From Candidatus Saccharimonadota bacterium (lineage in GTDB: Bacteria; Patescibacteriota; Saccharimonadia; Saccharimonadales; Saccharimonadaceae), in NCBI GenBank assembly GCA_017421325.1, contig JAFOJO010000014.1, positions 1 to 41,035 of the forward strand: 41,035 nucleotides of DNA. The letters are read 5' to 3'. Made by a program: the position numbers and the translations under genes. The notes beneath the pieces were generated by a model. The model did no database searches, was not told where the DNA came from, and saw only the letters and a program-made list of their open reading frames with translations. How positions within the stretch are numbered: position 1 is the stretch's first letter; each line of letters begins with the position of its first letter. This document shows, in pieces, positions 8,513 to 36,931 of the stretch.

Positions 8513-10147
8513 TCACCGGGCGAGGCAGCGGAGAGAATATCCATACTGTTTCACGTCGGAAAACTGATCGTCTGGCAAAACCGAACTTTCGCCGATATTT
8601 AGCCTAAATGAAGAATTTGCCGAATAATTAGTACTGGAGAAATAGTTACTCCTTTCATTATAGGAAAATAATTGCGCCGTATAAATTGCTCCACCTTTCT
8701 TCGCAAAATAAAGTGGCGCCGAAATCATACCGACAGACGTTGCGGCTAAATTATTATTGTATAGATAATTCAACCTCGCAAACTCATTAGTAGAACCGCT
8801 TATTGTATTGGGCTGGTTGGATATAGTAGGTAGCCTCCATCCTTTAGGGCAAATGGAGTTTTTAGGGTTCTTGGTTGTATCGTTTAGTGTACTTTGCGTT
8901 AACGAAGAAGAATTATTACTAGCTATAGCCGCTGTCCAGTTGTAATAGTTACCTAGTGATGCATGGCCGACTTCTGTGCTGTCAGTTTTATTTGCAGAGT
9001 ATGGATTATTATTATCATTTGCCCATCCAGTTACGGTGGTATTTTGAAAGTCTATAGTTTTTCTTTCTGGCGTCCAAGTAGTGGCCCCAGTATTCGTATT
9101 GTACGCATACCCATCCGAGTAAGCTCCGGTTAGTGAATGGTCTGTCAAATCTGTATCATTGGAAGTAAATGGTTTCATTACTTCTTGGCCCTGCTCGTTT
9201 GTATAAGTAGTCAAATCTAAGTCTAAATTCTGCGTCATCCAACAATGACCATCTTCTAGCTTGGCTACCCAGTATAATTTGTTATCTCTAATGTCTGCCA
9301 ATTGTGTAGCTGAGGCTTCATTTAATAGTTCCACTTTACTACATATATCACTAGTCATATCCTGCATAGTATAATAACTATTTCCATCTACATTAATGGC
9401 TCCTTTACCATTTGCGGCAAATACTTCATTAAAGCCAAAGTATTGACTATTGCTTTGTGGATGCACCATCAAATACTTAACCTTCCCAGTATAAGTTCCA
9501 GCGGGTTGCAGAGAACTAGCATAGATATCATAAGTAGTAGTAAAGTAGGAGCCAGTAACGGAAGTATCTATAGTCATATCGGTTTTAGAGGCCCTTGAAG
9601 CTACCAAAGTATAGTTTTCTGGTACTACACTATAACTATCATAGTTATTCCTGATAGTAGGTGGAGTAGTATCAACACCACTACCTACTCCTGCAGCCAG
9701 TTTCATAGACCAAGTAGAAGGAGAGGAAGGCGTAATACTGCCACTATCATATATACCGGTATGAATATTATAGTTATCATTGATATTACTAACTAAATCT
9801 GCATTACCATCTACATTATTACTACTACCTATAGCATAGATACTATAGCCATTATTATCATTACAATAAGCATTAACTTTAGTAACGCCTATATCATCTT
9901 CATATTGTCCACCATTTAGACTAGCCTCGTGCGCTTCTTCTATCGAACTACTTAAAGTGCAGGAAGTAGATAGAGTAAGAGTAAGATTATCTGTTTCTAG
10001 GTCTGAGACGGTAGCAGAACTATGAATAGATAAATGAAATAAGGCAACACCAGAAACTACAAGAAGAGGAATAGAAACGAGGAGAATATTACGGAAAGCT
10101 TTATAGAAGAATTCTGTATAATTATTTGTTTTATCGCTATGGCTCAT
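8513..10147 (-). CDS. FISUMP-domain membrane-anchored surface protein, paralog 1
   Basis: 544 aa from the ATG at 10147 (MSHSDKTNNYTEFF), preceded by AGGG. An upstream GTG at 10189 is in frame but falls inside the conserved leader. A membrane segment (about 17-38, NILLVSIPLLVVSGVALFHL) is followed by HSSAT, then a family domain (STSCTLSSSI, YCNDNNGYSIYAIGSSNNVDG). The C-terminal half is a FISUMP-type domain (Fibrobacter succinogenes major paralogous domain): DGHCWMTQNLDLDL, NYYNWTAAIASNNSSSL, NSICPKGWRLPT and the ending YGYSLRCLAR. The likely location is the cell surface. One of four paralogs in the window, all behind the same leader RNA. It separates ftsA from ftsZ. Confidence 0.88.
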   Translation of the reverse strand: MSHSDKTNNYTEFFYKAFRNILLVSIPLLVVSGVALFHLSIHSSATVSDLETDNLTLTLSTSCTLSSSIEEAHEASLNGGQYEDDIGVTKVNAYCNDNNGYSIYAIGSSNNVDGNADLVSNINDNYNIHTGIYDSGSITPSSPSTWSMKLAAGVGSGVDTTPPTIRNNYDSYSVVPENYTLVASRASKTDMTIDTSVTGSYFTTTYDIYASSLQPAGTYTGKVKYLMVHPQSNSQYFGFNEVFAANGKGAINVDGNSYYTMQDMTSDICSKVELLNEASATQLADIRDNKLYWVAKLEDGHCWMTQNLDLDLTTYTNEQGQEVMKPFTSNDTDLTDHSLTGAYSDGYAYNTNTGATTWTPERKTIDFQNTTVTGWANDNNNPYSANKTDSTEVGHASLGNYYNWTAAIASNNSSSLTQSTLNDTTKNPKNSICPKGWRLPTISNQPNTISGSTNEFARLNYLYNNNLAATSVGMISAPLYFAKKGGAIYTAQLFSYNERSNYFSSTNYSANSSFRLNIGESSVLPDDQFSDVKQYGYSLRCLAR

Positions 10148-10175: not shown

Positions 10176-10371
10176 CTTTGTGGTGCCACTTTGCGTAAAC
10201 GGGGTAGTAATACAAAAATGGCACCGCAAGGGGTGCTACAACCTAGTAATTTGTGTCGATATGATATCTACCCAAACACGTCGGCTTCCTTACGGTGCCG
10301 TCTTCTCGTGTTTAAGTAATTGTCATATCTAATAAAATATACGACACATTTAATTTTACTAAGTTGTAGCA
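10176..10371 (-). ncRNA. Conserved structured leader RNA, copy 1
   Basis: Closing helix TGCTACAACTTAGTAA (10371-10356) with TTACTAGGTTGTAGCA (10249-10234), 16 of 16 pairs with one G-U. Inner helices are TGTGTCG/CGACACA and AACACG/CGTGTT. The apical motif is GGCACCGTAAGG. It is followed by the block CACCCCTTGCGGTGCC, then TTTTTGTATTACTACCCCG and the end GGCACCACAAAG. TACAAT at 10382-10377 sets the 5' end just before the helix. Confidence 0.8.
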
Positions 10372-14304: not shown

Positions 14305-16098
14305 TCACAGTGACCTAGCAATACAGCGCACTGACCACCCGTCTTGTCCGATGACGCCGTAGGCCGGCCGGAGGCTGCCACTATCAAAACGCAGTCCGTA
14401 AGTACTAGAGCTACTATTAGCCGTACTAGACCAGTAGTATCCAAGTATGCCGGGGTTAACTAGACTACTGACAGAGATAACGCCAGACCGCACAAAATAA
14501 TATGGGCTGGAACGTATTTTGTTAAAACCGCCATCTTTATAGCCTACAGAATCGTTACCGTTAGACACCTTTGCAGTAATACTTGCGTTAAAAAACATTC
14601 TACCAAACTCATTATATTCATTATCTGTCTGTGAGGCATTGGGAAGTCTCCAACCTTTAGGGCAAATAGAATTGGGGACCCTACTATCGTTAGTGCTTAT
14701 ATTAGTAGAGTTATTAGATGCTATAGCTGCAGTCCAGTTATAGTAATTACCGGCAAAGTAATGTTTACATTCTGCTTCGGTATGACCTGCATCTTTACAA
14801 GTTTTGAGAGAGTTATATCTTGTATCGGCGCTAGTGGTGTTAGAGGTATAGTAATAAGCATCGCCGCCTTCAGCTGAATATGGCGCGGTGGTGCTATTTG
14901 ACCAACCCGTAACGCCAGTTCCTGATATGGTTCTTCCCGATGTGACGGCCGTAGAGACCGGATCCCAAGTATAGACCCCGCCCGATACTGTATAGTCCGA
15001 ATAAATGCCGGTGTTTGCATAAACTTCTGGATTAGTACTAATATCTGTGGTATTTGAATTGAGTGGCATATTCGTATTACCTATATCTAAGTCTAGGTTG
15101 CTCGTCATCCAACATTTACCATCATCCAGCTTCGCTACCCAGTAAAGTTTATGATCTCTAGTATCTACTAATTGTGTGGCAGTAATTTCACCTGTTCTAG
15201 TAATAGAATCACATATATTGCTATTCATATCCTGCATAGCGTAGTAGGAGTCATTCTCGTCTTGATATATTTTCTGCTTGCCAGCCGCGGCAAAGGCAGC
15301 ATTTATGTCTGGGATGGTATTTTTGGAATTGCTATTCGGGTGGACCATTACATATTTAACCTTGCCTTCATAACTCCCAGCAGGCTGGACTGAACTAGCA
15401 TAAACATCATAGGTGGTAGTGAAATAAGAACCAGTAACATCGGTATCTATAGTCATATTAGTGCCAGAAGTTCTTGAGGCCACTAAGGTATAGTTACTGG
15501 GTATTACGTTATAGTTGTTATAATCATTCATGATAGTAGGTGGAGTGAGTGGAATACTACTACCAGTATTGGTATCTATGCCGCTACCACTGCCAGCGGT
15601 AAGCTTCATAGACCAAGAGGAGGCAGTAAGAGAGTTAGAATTATTTTCATCGTAGACACCTGTATGGATATTATAGTTACCACCAATATTGGCATTTACT
15701 AAGTCCGTATTACCATCTACATTATTACTACTGCCTATGGCGTAGATACTATAGCCATTATTATCATTACAGTAAGCATTAATCCTAGTGCTACCAATAT
15801 CTGAAGTATAAGTACCGGCATTAACCGTGGCAGTATGATTGCTTTCTATTATACTATCTAGAGTACAGGCAGAGAGAATGGAGATAGATAGACTATCTGA
15901 ACCGGAAGTGGTGGCAGAAGAGTGGGAGATACTAAAGCCAAGGATAAGGGCAGAGAGGACAAGGAGCGGTACAGAAACTAGAAGAATGTTGCGAAAGAAA
16001 TGATAGTAGAATTCTATGTAACTAGCATCTCCACTATTTAATGATTTGTTTCTATTACTTCCTACTTTTATTTTAGACTTTGTGGTTCTATAACCCAT
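14305..16098 (-). CDS. FISUMP-domain membrane-anchored surface protein, paralog 2
   Basis: 597 aa. The ATG at 16098 (MGYRTTKSK) is best placed after AAGG. ATG 16104 and GTG 16107 are alternatives. Membrane segment at about 30-52 (NILLVSVPLLVLSALILGFSI), then HSSATTS and the family domain with YCNDNNGYSIYAIGSSNNVDG. The C-terminal FISUMP domain has DGKCWMTSNLDLDI, NYYNWTAAIASNNSTN, NSICPKGWRLPN, GYYWSSTANSSSS and GWSVRCIARSL. It shares long nucleotide identity with paralog 1 in the YCNDNNGYSIYAIG region. Downstream, 14172-14304 shows no gene or terminator. Confidence 0.88.
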   Translation of the reverse strand: MGYRTTKSKIKVGSNRNKSLNSGDASYIEFYYHFFRNILLVSVPLLVLSALILGFSISHSSATTSGSDSLSISILSACTLDSIIESNHTATVNAGTYTSDIGSTRINAYCNDNNGYSIYAIGSSNNVDGNTDLVNANIGGNYNIHTGVYDENNSNSLTASSWSMKLTAGSGSGIDTNTGSSIPLTPPTIMNDYNNYNVIPSNYTLVASRTSGTNMTIDTDVTGSYFTTTYDVYASSVQPAGSYEGKVKYVMVHPNSNSKNTIPDINAAFAAAGKQKIYQDENDSYYAMQDMNSNICDSITRTGEITATQLVDTRDHKLYWVAKLDDGKCWMTSNLDLDIGNTNMPLNSNTTDISTNPEVYANTGIYSDYTVSGGVYTWDPVSTAVTSGRTISGTGVTGWSNSTTAPYSAEGGDAYYYTSNTTSADTRYNSLKTCKDAGHTEAECKHYFAGNYYNWTAAIASNNSTNISTNDSRVPNSICPKGWRLPNASQTDNEYNEFGRMFFNASITAKVSNGNDSVGYKDGGFNKIRSSPYYFVRSGVISVSSLVNPGILGYYWSSTANSSSSTYGLRFDSGSLRPAYGVIGQDGWSVRCIARSL

Positions 16099-16140: not shown

Positions 16141-16317
16141 TTTGTGATGCCATTTTGTGTAAACGGGGTAGTCATACAAAAATGGCACCGCAAGGGTGCA
16201 ATCATCTAATAATCGTACCGAAGTCCGACAGTTAGACACCTCACGATGCCATTTTATGCTGTCGGATAATCGGTTGAATGAAAATATTCGGTACTTGTAT
16301 ATTATTAAATGATTGCA
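16141..16317 (-). ncRNA. Conserved structured leader RNA, copy 2
   Basis: Closing helix TGCAATCATTTAATAAT (16317-16301) with ATTATTAGATGATTGCA (16213-16197), 17 of 17 pairs with one G-U at the same place as in the other copies. Inner helices GTACCGAA/TTCGGTAC and CCGACAG/CTGTCGG. Apical GGCATCGTGAGG. The conserved downstream block ends GGCATCACAAAG. TATAAT at 16328-16323 sets the 5' end. Confidence 0.82.
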
Positions 16318-16351
16318 TTTTTATTATAACATACATAATGTTTTTGGTGGC

Positions 16352-27156: not shown

Positions 27157-28662
27157 TTATTCAGCTACGCAACGAATGGGTCTGCCTACGTTTCGATCGT
27201 CAGCATTAGAGACATTGGCAAGAGAGCTTGTAAAATAAAGTCCATAGGCGCCGCCTTGGCTATGTAATGTACTAGACCAAATACGGCCATCGCTACCAAG
27301 TGCACCTAAGGTCCCTTGCCAAATAGCACTATTTTTTGTAAACCATAAAGGATTAGTCGTTAGACCTTCATCGCTATTAGTTTTATTCTTATTGTAAAGG
27401 AGATTTAACCTAGCAATTTCATTAGTGGAGCCGGATATTGTATTAGATTGATTGGATATAGTAGGCAATCTCCACCCTTTAGGACAAATGGAATTTTTTG
27501 GATTGTTTGTTATATTATCTAGTGTATCTTGAGTTAATAAAGATGAATTATTACTAGCTATAGCTGCTGTCCAGTTATAGTAATTACCTAGTGAAGCATG
27601 GCCTGTTTCTGTACTGTCTGTCTTATTAGCAGTATATGGTGCAGTATTGCTATTCTGCCATCCAGGAACAGTAGTACCGGTAAAATCTATGGTGGTAGCA
27701 CTACTGGCTGGTTGCCAATAGATAATACCTCCATTGTTGGTATATCCGTCACGGTATTCGGGATAGCTATTGGTAGATGCATCATAGGCCACATTTAGGT
27801 CTGTAGTGTTGGAATCAAGTGTAGTATTGGCTTTTATGTCAAAATCTAAGTTCTGCGTCATCCAAATATGCCCATCCTTAAGTTTAGTCACCCAGTATTT
27901 CTTACCATCCCGTACATCTATAGCTTGTACGCTTTCTTCCAGAGCTAATTCGTTTTTCCATTTGTCTACATCTTGCATGTAGCGAAATGCTGGCGGATAA
28001 GCTGGATGAGTAAGCAAATACTTCACCTGCCCCTGATAAGTCCCAGCATATTGACTTGAACTAGCATATACAGCATAAGTAGTAGTAAAGGATGACCCTT
28101 GTGCCATGTCTGTAGTCCCAGAAGCTCTACTAGCTACCTTAGTCCAATAACTTGGTATTAGCCCATATGTATTATTATAATCACTTTCTATAGTAGGAGG
28201 AGTAGGTGAAGGGTCATCCGGTATGTTATTTAGTTTCATAGCCCAAGCAGAAGTAAGACCACTTGTAGCTAATCCTGTATCTATACTATATTGTGGATAT
28301 TCTGTATTTATTAATTTATTATTACCTTCTTCATTATTACTATACCCATTAGCATATACTGCATACCCATTACCATCATTACATAGTGTTTTAATAGTAG
28401 TCTTTCCTATACCTCCTAAATAGTTACCATTATATACTTCTGCATTATGAGGAATATTAACTACACTAGATAGAGTACAAGATGATGAGATAGTAATAGC
28501 TAGATTGTCTGAACCAGATGCAGAACCTGTGGCAGAGCTATGAGGTAATGATAAGATAATAGTTGAAATAATGACTAACGGAACGCTAACGAAAAGTACA
28601 TTACGGAAAGCATAGTAGAAGAAATCTGTATAACTATTTGTTTTATATTGTTTATCACCCAT
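27157..28662 (-). CDS. FISUMP-domain membrane-anchored surface protein, paralog 3
   Basis: 501 aa. ATG at 28662 follows GAGGT. Membrane segment at about 18-40 (NVLFVSVPLVIISTIILSL), then HSSATGS, then SSCTLSSVV and LCNDGNGYAVYANGYSNNEEG. FISUMP domain: DGHIWMTQNLDFDI (the usual Cys replaced by Ile), NYYNWTAAIASNNSSLL, NSICPKGWRLPT and IRCVAE. The block covering NYYNWTAAIASNNSS through GWRLPT is very similar at DNA level to paralog 1 (about 8820-8960), suggesting gene conversion. The leader RNA is separated from the start by a MITE-like repeat. Confidence 0.88.
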   Translation of the reverse strand: MGDKQYKTNSYTDFFYYAFRNVLFVSVPLVIISTIILSLPHSSATGSASGSDNLAITISSSCTLSSVVNIPHNAEVYNGNYLGGIGKTTIKTLCNDGNGYAVYANGYSNNEEGNNKLINTEYPQYSIDTGLATSGLTSAWAMKLNNIPDDPSPTPPTIESDYNNTYGLIPSYWTKVASRASGTTDMAQGSSFTTTYAVYASSSQYAGTYQGQVKYLLTHPAYPPAFRYMQDVDKWKNELALEESVQAIDVRDGKKYWVTKLKDGHIWMTQNLDFDIKANTTLDSNTTDLNVAYDASTNSYPEYRDGYTNNGGIIYWQPASSATTIDFTGTTVPGWQNSNTAPYTANKTDSTETGHASLGNYYNWTAAIASNNSSLLTQDTLDNITNNPKNSICPKGWRLPTISNQSNTISGSTNEIARLNLLYNKNKTNSDEGLTTNPLWFTKNSAIWQGTLGALGSDGRIWSSTLHSQGGAYGLYFTSSLANVSNADDRNVGRPIRCVAE

Positions 28663-28702
28663 TTTACCTCACCTATAGTTTTAGTTTAATTAACTTACTG
28701 AT

Positions 28703-28835
28703 GCATAATTCATTAATGTTGAGGGACATAAAGGTAAAATCTACCAGGTGTAGATTTTACCGCCGAAGGGGCGGAGTGATGTGATAAAAAATCTATTATC
28801 ACATCACGAAGCTCCCGAAACATAATGAATTATGC
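28703..28835 (-). repeat. MITE-like palindromic repeat, copy B
   Basis: Same structure as copy A in the opposite orientation: GCATAATTCATTATG, GTGATGTGATAA/TTATCACATCAC hairpin, CTCCGCCCCTTCGGCGG, a different hairpin TAAAATCTAC/GTAGATTTTA, then CCTTTATGTCCCTC and TAATGAATTATGC. It sits between leader copy 3 and the start codon of FISUMP paralog 3. Confidence 0.75.
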
Positions 28836-28849
28836 AAAAGTACTTTTCA

Positions 28850-29034
28850 CTTGTGGTGCCACTTGTAAACGGGGTAGTCATACAAAAATGGCACCGCAAG
28901 GGTGTTACAGTCTGATAATCACACTAGGCCATGTAGGCTAATTGAATAATCAGCTCCTTACGATGCCGTTTATATCCAATTAACCTATTAAAATTGAAAA
29001 TACCTAGTGTTTTTCAATTTATCAAACTGTAACA
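28850..29034 (-). ncRNA. Conserved structured leader RNA, copy 3
   Basis: Closing helix TGTTACAGTTTGATAA (29034-29019) with TTATCAGACTGTAACA (28918-28903), 16 of 16 pairs with one G-U. Inner helices ACACTAGG/CCTAGTGT and TAATTG/CAATTA. Apical GGCATCGTAAGG. The downstream block is the same as the others and ends GGCACCACAAG. TATAAT at 29045-29040. Unlike the other copies it lies about 190 nt from its gene because of repeat copy B. Confidence 0.82.
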
Positions 29035-35092: not shown

Positions 35093-36745
35093 CTAGCGGG
35101 CGAGACAACGGATAGACCGCCCTAGGGTTTTGCCGTTATAATAACTGTAACCGTCGCTAGAAGTGGCTGGATTGGCGCTACTGTTACTAAAGCTCAGGAA
35201 GTAAGCGTAGTTACCATTGTGGACCGTACTAGACCAATAACCGCCATTAGCACCGTAATTATTAAGTCCGCCAGCGCGCACGAGGCCGGAATGTGCAAAC
35301 CATAAAGGAGAAGCAATCAAGCCGGCATCGCTAGTGGCGGAACCACTGTTATATAAATTATTTAGCTTAGCGAATTCATTATTAGCTGTCACGCTAGAGA
35401 TGGTAGGGAGCCTCCAACCTTTAGGGCAGATAGAATTCTGTGGATTTTTGCTTACGTCGCCGTAAGTACTCGTAACATAACTGCTAGAGTTGTTGGATGC
35501 AATGGTGGCAGACCAGTTATAATAATTGCCGGCGGCTGTATGGCCAGTAAGCGTACCGTCAGTTTTTCGGGCCGAACACATAATATTATAATTACTATTA
35601 TTCCATCCAGACATGCTAGTACCAGAAAAATTTATTGTTGCATTCGCTGGCCTCCAAGTAAGCACATTATTTTCATACATATAGCCTAACTCATACGCTC
35701 CACTTAGCGAATTATCGTTCAAATCTGTATTCTCAGAAGTTAGGGGAGCTACATTAGTAGGAATAGTCTCTAGGTCTAGAGCTAGGTTCTGTGTCATCCA
35801 GCAGTTGCCGTCTTGTAGTTTGGTAACGTAATAAGTCTTGTTGTCTCGCACGTCTATGAGTTGTGCTTCTGAGGCAGTGTCTACATAGGTAACAGTACCA
35901 CAAATGCCAGCATCCATGTCTTGCATTCGATAGTATCTACCTACGATATCTTCTGCTGGAATGTCTTCAGAGCCTTCACTACCTTCTTCTACTGTGGTGC
36001 CGTCTGTTTTAAGAATTAGCCTAGTTTTATTGGCTAGGAAGAAGGCGTTGTCTATAGTAGTAGCTAGATTATCTGCTGTAGATGGGCGTAATAGCATAAA
36101 CTGTACTTGTCCAGAATAAGTACCAGCTGGCTGGCTAGGAGTAGTATATACAGCATAGGTAGTAGTAAAGGCAGATTTAACGTTATCGCTGATATCGGTA
36201 TTAGTACTAGTACCAGAAGATCTAGATACTACTTTAGTCCAATCACTAGGTACTGGAGCATATTTATTATTATAAGTATCTACTACGGTAGGAGAATAAT
36301 CACTAGCTACAGGATTTAGTTTTAAGGCCCAGCTAGAGTTACTGTTGGTACTAGGAATATTGCCAGTCTTGATATCATAACTTGGACCAATAGGAGAAGA
36401 TAAGACTGGTTCATTTAAGCCATTTTGAGTAATACCTTTAGCATAGACTACATAACCATTCTTATCATTGCACAAAGTATTAATTTCTGTGGAGCCTATA
36501 TTCTCTTTTAGTTGTCCACTAACCATATTAGTAATATGACTATTATTGCCAGAAGTAACCAAGGTGCAAGAGGAAGGAAGATTAATGCTGACATAATCCG
36601 AAGAAGAGTTATTGACGGCAGAACTATGCGGTAAAGATAAGGCTATAGTAAATACAATAAGGAGTGGGAGAGAAACTAGGAGAATGTTGCGGAAGAAATG
36701 ATAGTAGAATTCTGTATAATTTTCTGTTTTATTATTGTGCCTCAT
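35093..36745 (-). CDS. FISUMP-domain membrane-anchored surface protein, paralog 4
   Basis: 550 aa. ATG at 36745 (MRHNNKTENYTEFYY) follows AGGG. Membrane segment about 17-39 (NILLVSLPLLIVFTIALSL), HSSAVNN, then SSCTLVTSGNN and LCNDKNGYVVYAKGI. FISUMP domain: DGNCWMTQNLALDL, NYYNWSATIASNNSSS, NSICPKGWRLPT, NGGYWSSTVHNGNYAY and SIRCLAR. It carries a longer linker (TDGTTVEEGSEGSEDIPAEDIVG) than the others. Its first 16 codons and upstream sequence are nearly the same as paralog 1. Confidence 0.88.
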   Translation of the reverse strand: MRHNNKTENYTEFYYHFFRNILLVSLPLLIVFTIALSLPHSSAVNNSSSDYVSINLPSSCTLVTSGNNSHITNMVSGQLKENIGSTEINTLCNDKNGYVVYAKGITQNGLNEPVLSSPIGPSYDIKTGNIPSTNSNSSWALKLNPVASDYSPTVVDTYNNKYAPVPSDWTKVVSRSSGTSTNTDISDNVKSAFTTTYAVYTTPSQPAGTYSGQVQFMLLRPSTADNLATTIDNAFFLANKTRLILKTDGTTVEEGSEGSEDIPAEDIVGRYYRMQDMDAGICGTVTYVDTASEAQLIDVRDNKTYYVTKLQDGNCWMTQNLALDLETIPTNVAPLTSENTDLNDNSLSGAYELGYMYENNVLTWRPANATINFSGTSMSGWNNSNYNIMCSARKTDGTLTGHTAAGNYYNWSATIASNNSSSYVTSTYGDVSKNPQNSICPKGWRLPTISSVTANNEFAKLNNLYNSGSATSDAGLIASPLWFAHSGLVRAGGLNNYGANGGYWSSTVHNGNYAYFLSFSNSSANPATSSDGYSYYNGKTLGRSIRCLAR

Positions 36746-36774: not shown

Positions 36775-36931
36775 CTTTGTGGCGCCATTTTGTGTAAACG
36801 GGGTAGTAATACAAAAATGGCACCGCAAGGGTGCTATAGTCCAACGATATTCAAACAATCGAGAGACACCTTACGATGCCATGATTAATTGTTTGAATAA
36901 CGTTTATAAAAAATAACGTTGAACTATAGCA
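36775..36931 (-). ncRNA. Conserved structured leader RNA, copy 4
   Basis: Closing helix TGCTATAGTTCAACG (36931-36917) with CGTTGGACTATAGCA (36846-36832), 15 of 15 pairs with one G-U. Inner helix TATTCAAACAAT/ATTGTTTGAATA. Apical GGCATCGTAAGG. The conserved block ends GGCGCCACAAAG. TATAAT at 36942-36937. Confidence 0.82.

What the first reader, a model, noticed from the sequence alone, without database searches (positions are those of the whole stretch)
16141..16213. Leader contains mutually exclusive pairings, as in a riboswitch or attenuator
In all copies the central GGTGCC can pair with three partners: GCACC just 5' (small hairpin with loop CTTGC), GGCAYC in the upstream apical loop (a pseudoknot), or GGCRYC at the leader's 3' end, where the pairing extends to about 12-14 bp (GGTGCCATTTTTGT with ACACAAAATGGCATC in copy 2). 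Apical and 3' partners have nearly the same sequence, so only one can pair at a time. The 3' pairing lies about 40 nt before the start codon and could affect translation or elongation. No T-rich terminator is present, which argues for translational control or a protein ligand.
Basis: inference. Interest (0 to 1): 0.8.

Follow-up and report, generated by a model that had tools for sequence, protein, structure and literature searches.

The report
RNA on/off switch before surface-protein genes
A tiny parasitic bacterium (Candidatus Saccharibacteria) carries at least 44 copies of a previously undescribed RNA switch, mostly in front of surface-adhesin-like genes, in which one strand can either form a transcription stop signal or pair with a distant loop that would cancel it; relatives of the switch occur across the phylum, so it may show how these organisms control the proteins they use to contact their hosts.

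Summary
The region is the 3' part of a ~145-nt structured RNA that starts just after its own -10 box. The window holds four copies and the genome 44; 33 of these precede a FISUMP-domain secreted protein. A covariance model finds the RNA in 17 of 40 genomes of the genus. A second model, trained only on relatives from other genera, re-finds 41 own-genome copies, and reaches 17 of 40 genera of the family and a few genomes elsewhere in the phylum. It matches no Rfam family. The GGTGCC strand (S) has two conserved, mutually exclusive partners. The other is the apical loop (A), a 12-16-bp pseudoknot with compensatory changes at 8 of 16 pairs. In three distant loci, hairpin arm and A carry the same substitution matching S. 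The third partner (D) is a genus-level feature, absent from distant relatives. Most likely mechanism: transcription attenuation with a pseudoknot antiterminator and an unknown signal. Which fold is ON, and the ligand, are inferred, not shown.

The parts
16323..16331 (-). Promoter -10 (TGTTATAAT, extended) of copy 2; predicted RNA start about 16317-16316
   Evidence: sequence; TGNTATAAT-like box lies directly before the basal helix in almost all copies; no mapped start site
16301..16317 (-). P1, 5' strand (copy 2)
   Evidence: 16 alignment columns pair, nearly all with both-sided changes
16239..16257 (-). A: apical-loop strand AUAAAAUGGCAUCGUGAGG, partner of S (copy 2)
   Evidence: (A:S covariation)
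16197..16213 (-). P1, 3' strand (copy 2); its last bases GCA overlap the 5' arm of the terminator-like hairpin
16185..16199 (-). Terminator-like hairpin GCACC-CUUGC-GGUGC (copy 2), followed by CA and UUUUU
16176..16195 (-). S: switching strand CCUUGCGGUGCCAUUUUUGU (copy 2)
16143..16160 (-). D: genus-level third partner ACACAAAATGGCATCACA (copy 2)
14305..16098 (-). Gene behind copy 2: 597-aa secreted FISUMP-domain protein
   Evidence: NCBIfam TIGR02145 E 8.3e-14
10212..10371 (-). RNA element copy 1 (hairpin 10236-10221, A 10304-10288, D 10195-10179)
8513..10147 (-). FISUMP-domain gene behind copy 1
28882..29034 (-). RNA element copy 3 (hairpin 28904-28891, A 28974-28956, D 28866-28852)
27157..28662 (-). 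FISUMP-domain gene behind copy 3
36811..36931 (-). RNA element copy 4, the shortest (hairpin 36834-36820, A 36883-36869, D 36795-36778)
35093..36745 (-). FISUMP-domain gene behind copy 4

Best explanation
The element is a cis-acting transcription attenuator. Transcription starts at the foot of a long stem (P1-P2-P3, with a U-rich segment on its 5' side) whose apical loop displays strand A. Strand S follows the stem directly. If S pairs back onto the foot of the stem, it makes a short GC hairpin before a U run and RNA polymerase stops before the gene. If S is captured by A (a 12-16 bp pseudoknot that covers the hairpin loop, its 3' arm and part of the U run), the hairpin cannot form and the gene is transcribed. 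Shown by comparison: the stem P1, the A:S pairing, the hairpin pairing, their mutual exclusion, the U run and the gene association. Inferred: that the hairpin really terminates, that A:S is the ON state, and that a cellular signal changes access to A. In this genus the module stands between promoter and start codon of a large family of secreted FISUMP proteins, which would give one shared signal control over the surface repertoire.
For: A:S: 93.2% of cells paired, 8 of 16 pairs with both-sided changes, 0/500 shuffles, slid controls 38-54%; own A-S duplex -26.0 versus -23.7 (sd 0.16) kcal/mol when partners are swapped among copies. Hairpin: arm position x1 against y1 is G-C 115, A-U 21, A-C 17, G-U 2; Fisher p 1e-13, phylogeny not corrected. 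Three-way covariation in distant loci: L298 hairpin GACAACC/GGUUGUC with A GGGCAACU; L303 and L311 GACGACC/GGUCGUC with A GGGCGACU. U run of at least 5 in 159 of 161. Terminator scan finds it blind. A model trained only on other-genus copies re-finds 41 own-genome copies. Promoter directly upstream in almost all copies; no obvious second promoter was seen by eye between U run and start codon. 33 of 44 copies precede a FISUMP domain.
Against: No RNA data. The genus-type hairpin is short (-4 to -7.5 kcal/mol) with a two-base spacer before the U run, so it may be a weak terminator alone. A:S is also a GC-rich helix before the U run and could itself terminate. A long straight stem would put A far from S; a test for fold-back geometry was inconclusive. 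No ligand or sensing protein identified.
Confidence: 0.68

Rival explanations
1. Reverse logic: the A:S pseudoknot itself, ending at the U run, is the terminator (OFF), and the local hairpin or the D pairing relieves it.
For: A:S is GC-rich, long, and ends exactly at the U run; D competes for S in this genus.
Against: The compact hairpin with tetraloop and U run in distant homologues (e.g. GACACC-UUGC-GGUGUC-G-UUUUUU, GACACCA-CGCG-UGGUGUC-G-UUUUUU) is the textbook terminator; A:S also pairs with part of the U run; D is missing in those homologues and is made only after the U run.
Confidence: 0.17
2. Translational or RNA-stability control: S:D in the leader near the start codon, with S sequestered by A in the other state; the U run is incidental.
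For: D pairs with S in 95% of own-genome copies and lies about 30-200 nt before the start codon.
Against: D absent in 11 of 11 other-genus copies while U run, hairpin and A:S persist; D does not cover the ribosome-binding site.
Confidence: 0.1
3. A stand-alone small RNA ended by its own terminator and protected at its 3' end by A, acting in trans, with genes downstream by chance.
For: Own promoter-like box and terminator-like end; compact, length nearly constant.
Against: 44 copies, 33 directly before one gene family on the same strand; no obvious other promoter for the genes by eye; homologous genes without the RNA mostly carry the -10 box right before the start codon.
Confidence: 0.05

Closest known systems
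T-box riboswitch (RF00230)
   Same: 5' leader, terminator against antiterminator, many copies per genome; the A strand of some copies (UGGUACCGCG) happens to match the T-box core UGGNACCGCG
   Different: No Rfam hit; the UGGN tRNA-acceptor site is not kept (C instead of U in 49 of 161 copies); A lies in an apical loop; no recognised stem I, no amino-acid genes
Intrinsic-terminator riboswitches and attenuators in general
   Same: promoter, structured RNA, competing pairings, GC hairpin plus U run before the gene
   Different: proposed antiterminator is an apical-loop pseudoknot that captures loop, 3' arm and part of the U run, rather than the 5' arm; no known aptamer; copy number 44 in 0.86 Mb
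Cyclic-di-GMP riboswitches (GEMM) in front of surface genes
   Same: many copies in one genome, surface-protein regulon (from general knowledge)
   Different: no Rfam hit; no GGDEF and no DAC domain found in this genome
LOOT RNA (RF03000)
   Same: also in this phylum; one lies about 1.1 kb downstream of an element in L297, before another gene
   Different: separate sequence and fold; the element itself does not match its model

Membership tests
Any Rfam 15 family | covariance-model match | tested here: not met
   window at gathering, copy 2 at E<=5, 14 divergent loci at E<=1: no match over the element apart from chance miRNA scores far below their cut-offs
T-box riboswitch | covariance-model match to RF00230 | tested here: not met
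T-box riboswitch | invariant UGGN that pairs with tRNA NCCA | tested here: not met
   U is replaced by C in 49 of 161 copies
T-box riboswitch | stem I with specifier loop | tested here: inconclusive
   no conserved internal-loop codon seen in P1-P3; not formally tested
Transcription attenuator with intrinsic terminator | GC hairpin followed by U run, upstream of the gene on the same strand | tested here: met
Transcription attenuator with intrinsic terminator | conserved competing pairing that excludes the terminator | tested here: met
Transcription attenuator with intrinsic terminator | measured termination and read-through | not testable with these tools
   needs RNA
Riboswitch | direct binding of a small ligand | not testable with these tools
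   no ligand candidate; cyclic-di-GMP and cyclic-di-AMP synthase domains not found
LOOT RNA | match to RF03000 | tested here: not met

The most novel reading that the evidence does not exclude
A new class of ligand-sensing RNA, specific to Patescibacteria, whose antiterminator is an apical-loop pseudoknot, and which in some Saccharibacteria has spread to more than 40 copies so that one host- or stress-derived signal sets the adhesin repertoire of the episymbiont.
Probability: 0.35. Interest if true: 0.93.

Novelty: new variant of a known kind. Interest (0 to 1): 0.82.

Why it matters
Little is known about gene regulation in Patescibacteria (CPR), which have tiny genomes and, where cultured, live on host cells. 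This would be a regulatory RNA found across much of one family and scattered through the phylum, which in one lineage stands before most copies of a large surface-protein family, at a density of about one per 20 kb, unusually high for a cis-regulatory RNA as far as I know. It gives a concrete handle (one conserved switch, point mutants with predicted opposite effects) on how episymbionts choose which surface proteins to show. It also offers a rare case in which three-way covariation documents a switching strand.

Tried and rejected
Rfam at strict and loose thresholds: nothing over the element. T-box membership: rejected on the UGGN test. Integron attC-like DNA sites: considered because the sequence varies while the fold is kept; set aside because a promoter-like box lies before almost every copy, copies are dispersed on both strands, and the sense strand folds better than its complement (mean z -4.35 versus -3.29), as expected from G-U pairs in RNA. 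Phage origin: no match in phage records, no match to the distant-type pattern and one match to the genus-type pattern in viral contigs. Trans pairing between copies: less likely, as own A-S pairs beat swapped ones (within one genome p 0.035). Fold-back geometry test by helix lengths: inconclusive, helix boundaries are ambiguous. U-loop branch hairpin P2a: only slightly above shuffled sequence (89% versus 80% with at least 4 bp), so weakly supported in the genus type. Pairing of the 5' junction strand with A in distant copies: seen by eye, not testable because A hardly varies there. Papers: no description found of such an RNA in Saccharibacteria or Patescibacteria.

Full report
WHAT IS THERE. 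On the minus strand, 16317 to 16176 is a ~142-nt RNA element followed by a 77-nt stretch and the ATG (16098) of a 597-aa secreted protein. The same element occurs four times in the window and, by covariance model R1, 44 times in the 861-kb genome. A -10 box of the form TGNTATAAT lies about 6-7 nt before the foot of the stem in almost all copies, so the RNA probably begins with the first strand of helix P1.

ANATOMY (RNA sense). P1 (about 16-20 bp), P2, a U-rich segment on the 5' side, P3, and an apical loop of about 25 nt carrying A = (AAA)UGGCRYCGYRAGG. The 3' strand runs back through P3', P2', P1' and passes directly into S = CCUYGCGGUGCCAUUUUU. Helix sequences differ almost completely between copies of one genome, but P1 is kept: 16 columns, nearly all with compensatory changes. 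The region inside P1 folds far better than shuffled sequence (mean z -4.35, 96% of 161 copies beyond -1.645) and better than its complement (-3.29).

TEST OF THE THREE PARTNERS. (1) Apical loop A: on 78 diverse copies, the 16-bp A:S helix has 93.2% of cells paired, 8 pairs with both-sided changes, 70 cells with such changes; 0 of 500 shuffles reach any of the measures; slid versions give 38-54%. Own A-S partners pair better than swapped ones (-26.0 versus -23.7 kcal/mol, sd 0.16), which favours pairing in cis. (2) Local hairpin: its core CACC/GGUG is nearly invariant and says little, but the next pair covaries: G-C 115, A-U 21, against A-C 17 and G-U 2. In homologues from other genera and families it is a textbook terminator shape: GACACC-UUGC-GGUGUC-G-UUUUUU; GACACCA-CGCG-UGGUGUC-G-UUUUUU; GACACCG-UUGG-CGGUGUC-CC-UUUUU. 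(3) D, the 3' partner: significant in 95% of own-genome copies (recent paralogues) and 77% of other genus-level copies, and in none of 11 from other genera. Three-way covariation supports mutual exclusion of (1) and (2): in L298 hairpin arm, S and A all carry the extra A/U step (GACAACC, GGUUGUC, GGGCAACU); in L303 and L311 all carry G/C there (GACGACC, GGUCGUC, GGGCGACU). Fisher and shuffle values do not correct for shared ancestry; the independent lineages just named are the stronger argument.

TERMINATOR. A run of at least five T follows in 159 of 161 copies, and the conserved element ends there; what follows differs between genomes. A blind scan reports 16199-16185 and 10236-10221 as terminator-like. 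The genus-type hairpin is modest (-4 to -7.5 kcal/mol; distant type -9.7), whereas the A:S duplex is -21 to -25 before any pseudoknot cost.

GENES. The four window genes carry the FISUMP (Fib_succ_major) domain, TIGR02145 E 9.5e-11 to 5.1e-14, above its cut-off. Thirty-three of the 44 own-genome copies have such a domain within 2.5 kb downstream on the same strand; most of the remaining copies lie near contig ends. That FISUMP proteins are surface adhesins is an inference from the N-terminal membrane segment, their size and general knowledge of the domain, not tested. In genomes of the genus without the RNA, FISUMP genes are common, and in most of the 20 upstream regions read, the -10 box lies right before the start codon, i.e. 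they look leaderless: the RNA looks like a module placed between promoter and gene. In other genera the downstream genes vary: OmpA-like, DUF4352, Ltp lipoprotein, DUF4190, a FISUMP protein, but also a Tsp45I-like restriction enzyme and a DNA methylase.

DISTRIBUTION. R1: 17 of 40 genomes of the genus, 1-20 copies in those other than the own genome; rare in a phylum sample (4 of 287). R2, trained on ten other-genus copies only, re-finds 41 own-genome copies and hits 17 of 40 family genera and 18 of 380 phylum genomes, including members of other families, another order and another class (in these large samples only the best few candidates per genome are scored, so the counts are lower bounds). 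Named relatives are Candidatus Saccharibacteria MAGs, many from ruminant gut.

MECHANISM. Best reading: attenuation by an intrinsic terminator, relieved when the apical loop captures S. Because the stem is complete before S is made, the choice is taken as S leaves the polymerase; A can nucleate on the hairpin loop CCUUG before the 3' arm appears. Which fold is ON and what alters A are inferred. Cyclic di-GMP and cyclic di-AMP made by the cell itself are unlikely signals, as neither GGDEF nor DAC was found in the genome although the control genomes gave matches.

LIMITS. No RNA data; a cis pseudoknot needs the stem to bend and my length test was inconclusive; P2 and P3 could not be aligned well enough for pair-by-pair counts; novelty rests on Rfam 15 and an open-access paper search only.

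Noticed in passing
window 28690-28850 (- strand); also in L030, L033, L035: Between D and the start codon of copy 3 lies a ~150-bp insert with terminal inverted repeats (TTTTGCATAATTCATTA...TAATGAATTATGCATCA) and inner hairpins; near-identical inserts sit at the same place in several other copies, as a small non-coding mobile element would.
   Followed up: no
L020, L026, L032, downstream of the element: A second repeated insert (AGCGGGKCCTGTCACYCATATTCTATCTTGGGCTGCGTCC...) lies between RNA and gene in other copies.
   Followed up: no
L251-L270 (same-genus genomes without the RNA): FISUMP genes there mostly have a -10 box about 6-7 nt before the start codon, i.e. look leaderless.
   Followed up: partly
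L297:2745-2862: A LOOT RNA (RF03000, 74 bits) stands in front of a gene close to one of our elements; LOOT may be another gene leader in this phylum.
   Followed up: partly
L051, L057, L062 (genome G014): The downstream segment repeats the 5' strand of that copy's own P1, so it could pair with P1' and the hairpin arm (e.g. GUGUGAACACCC with GGGUGUUCAUAC): a copy-specific extra competitor.
   Followed up: no
own genome, contig ends: Many contigs break a few hundred bases downstream of an element, inside the shared N-terminal part of the FISUMP genes, so copy numbers are lower bounds and these genes may recombine.
   Followed up: no
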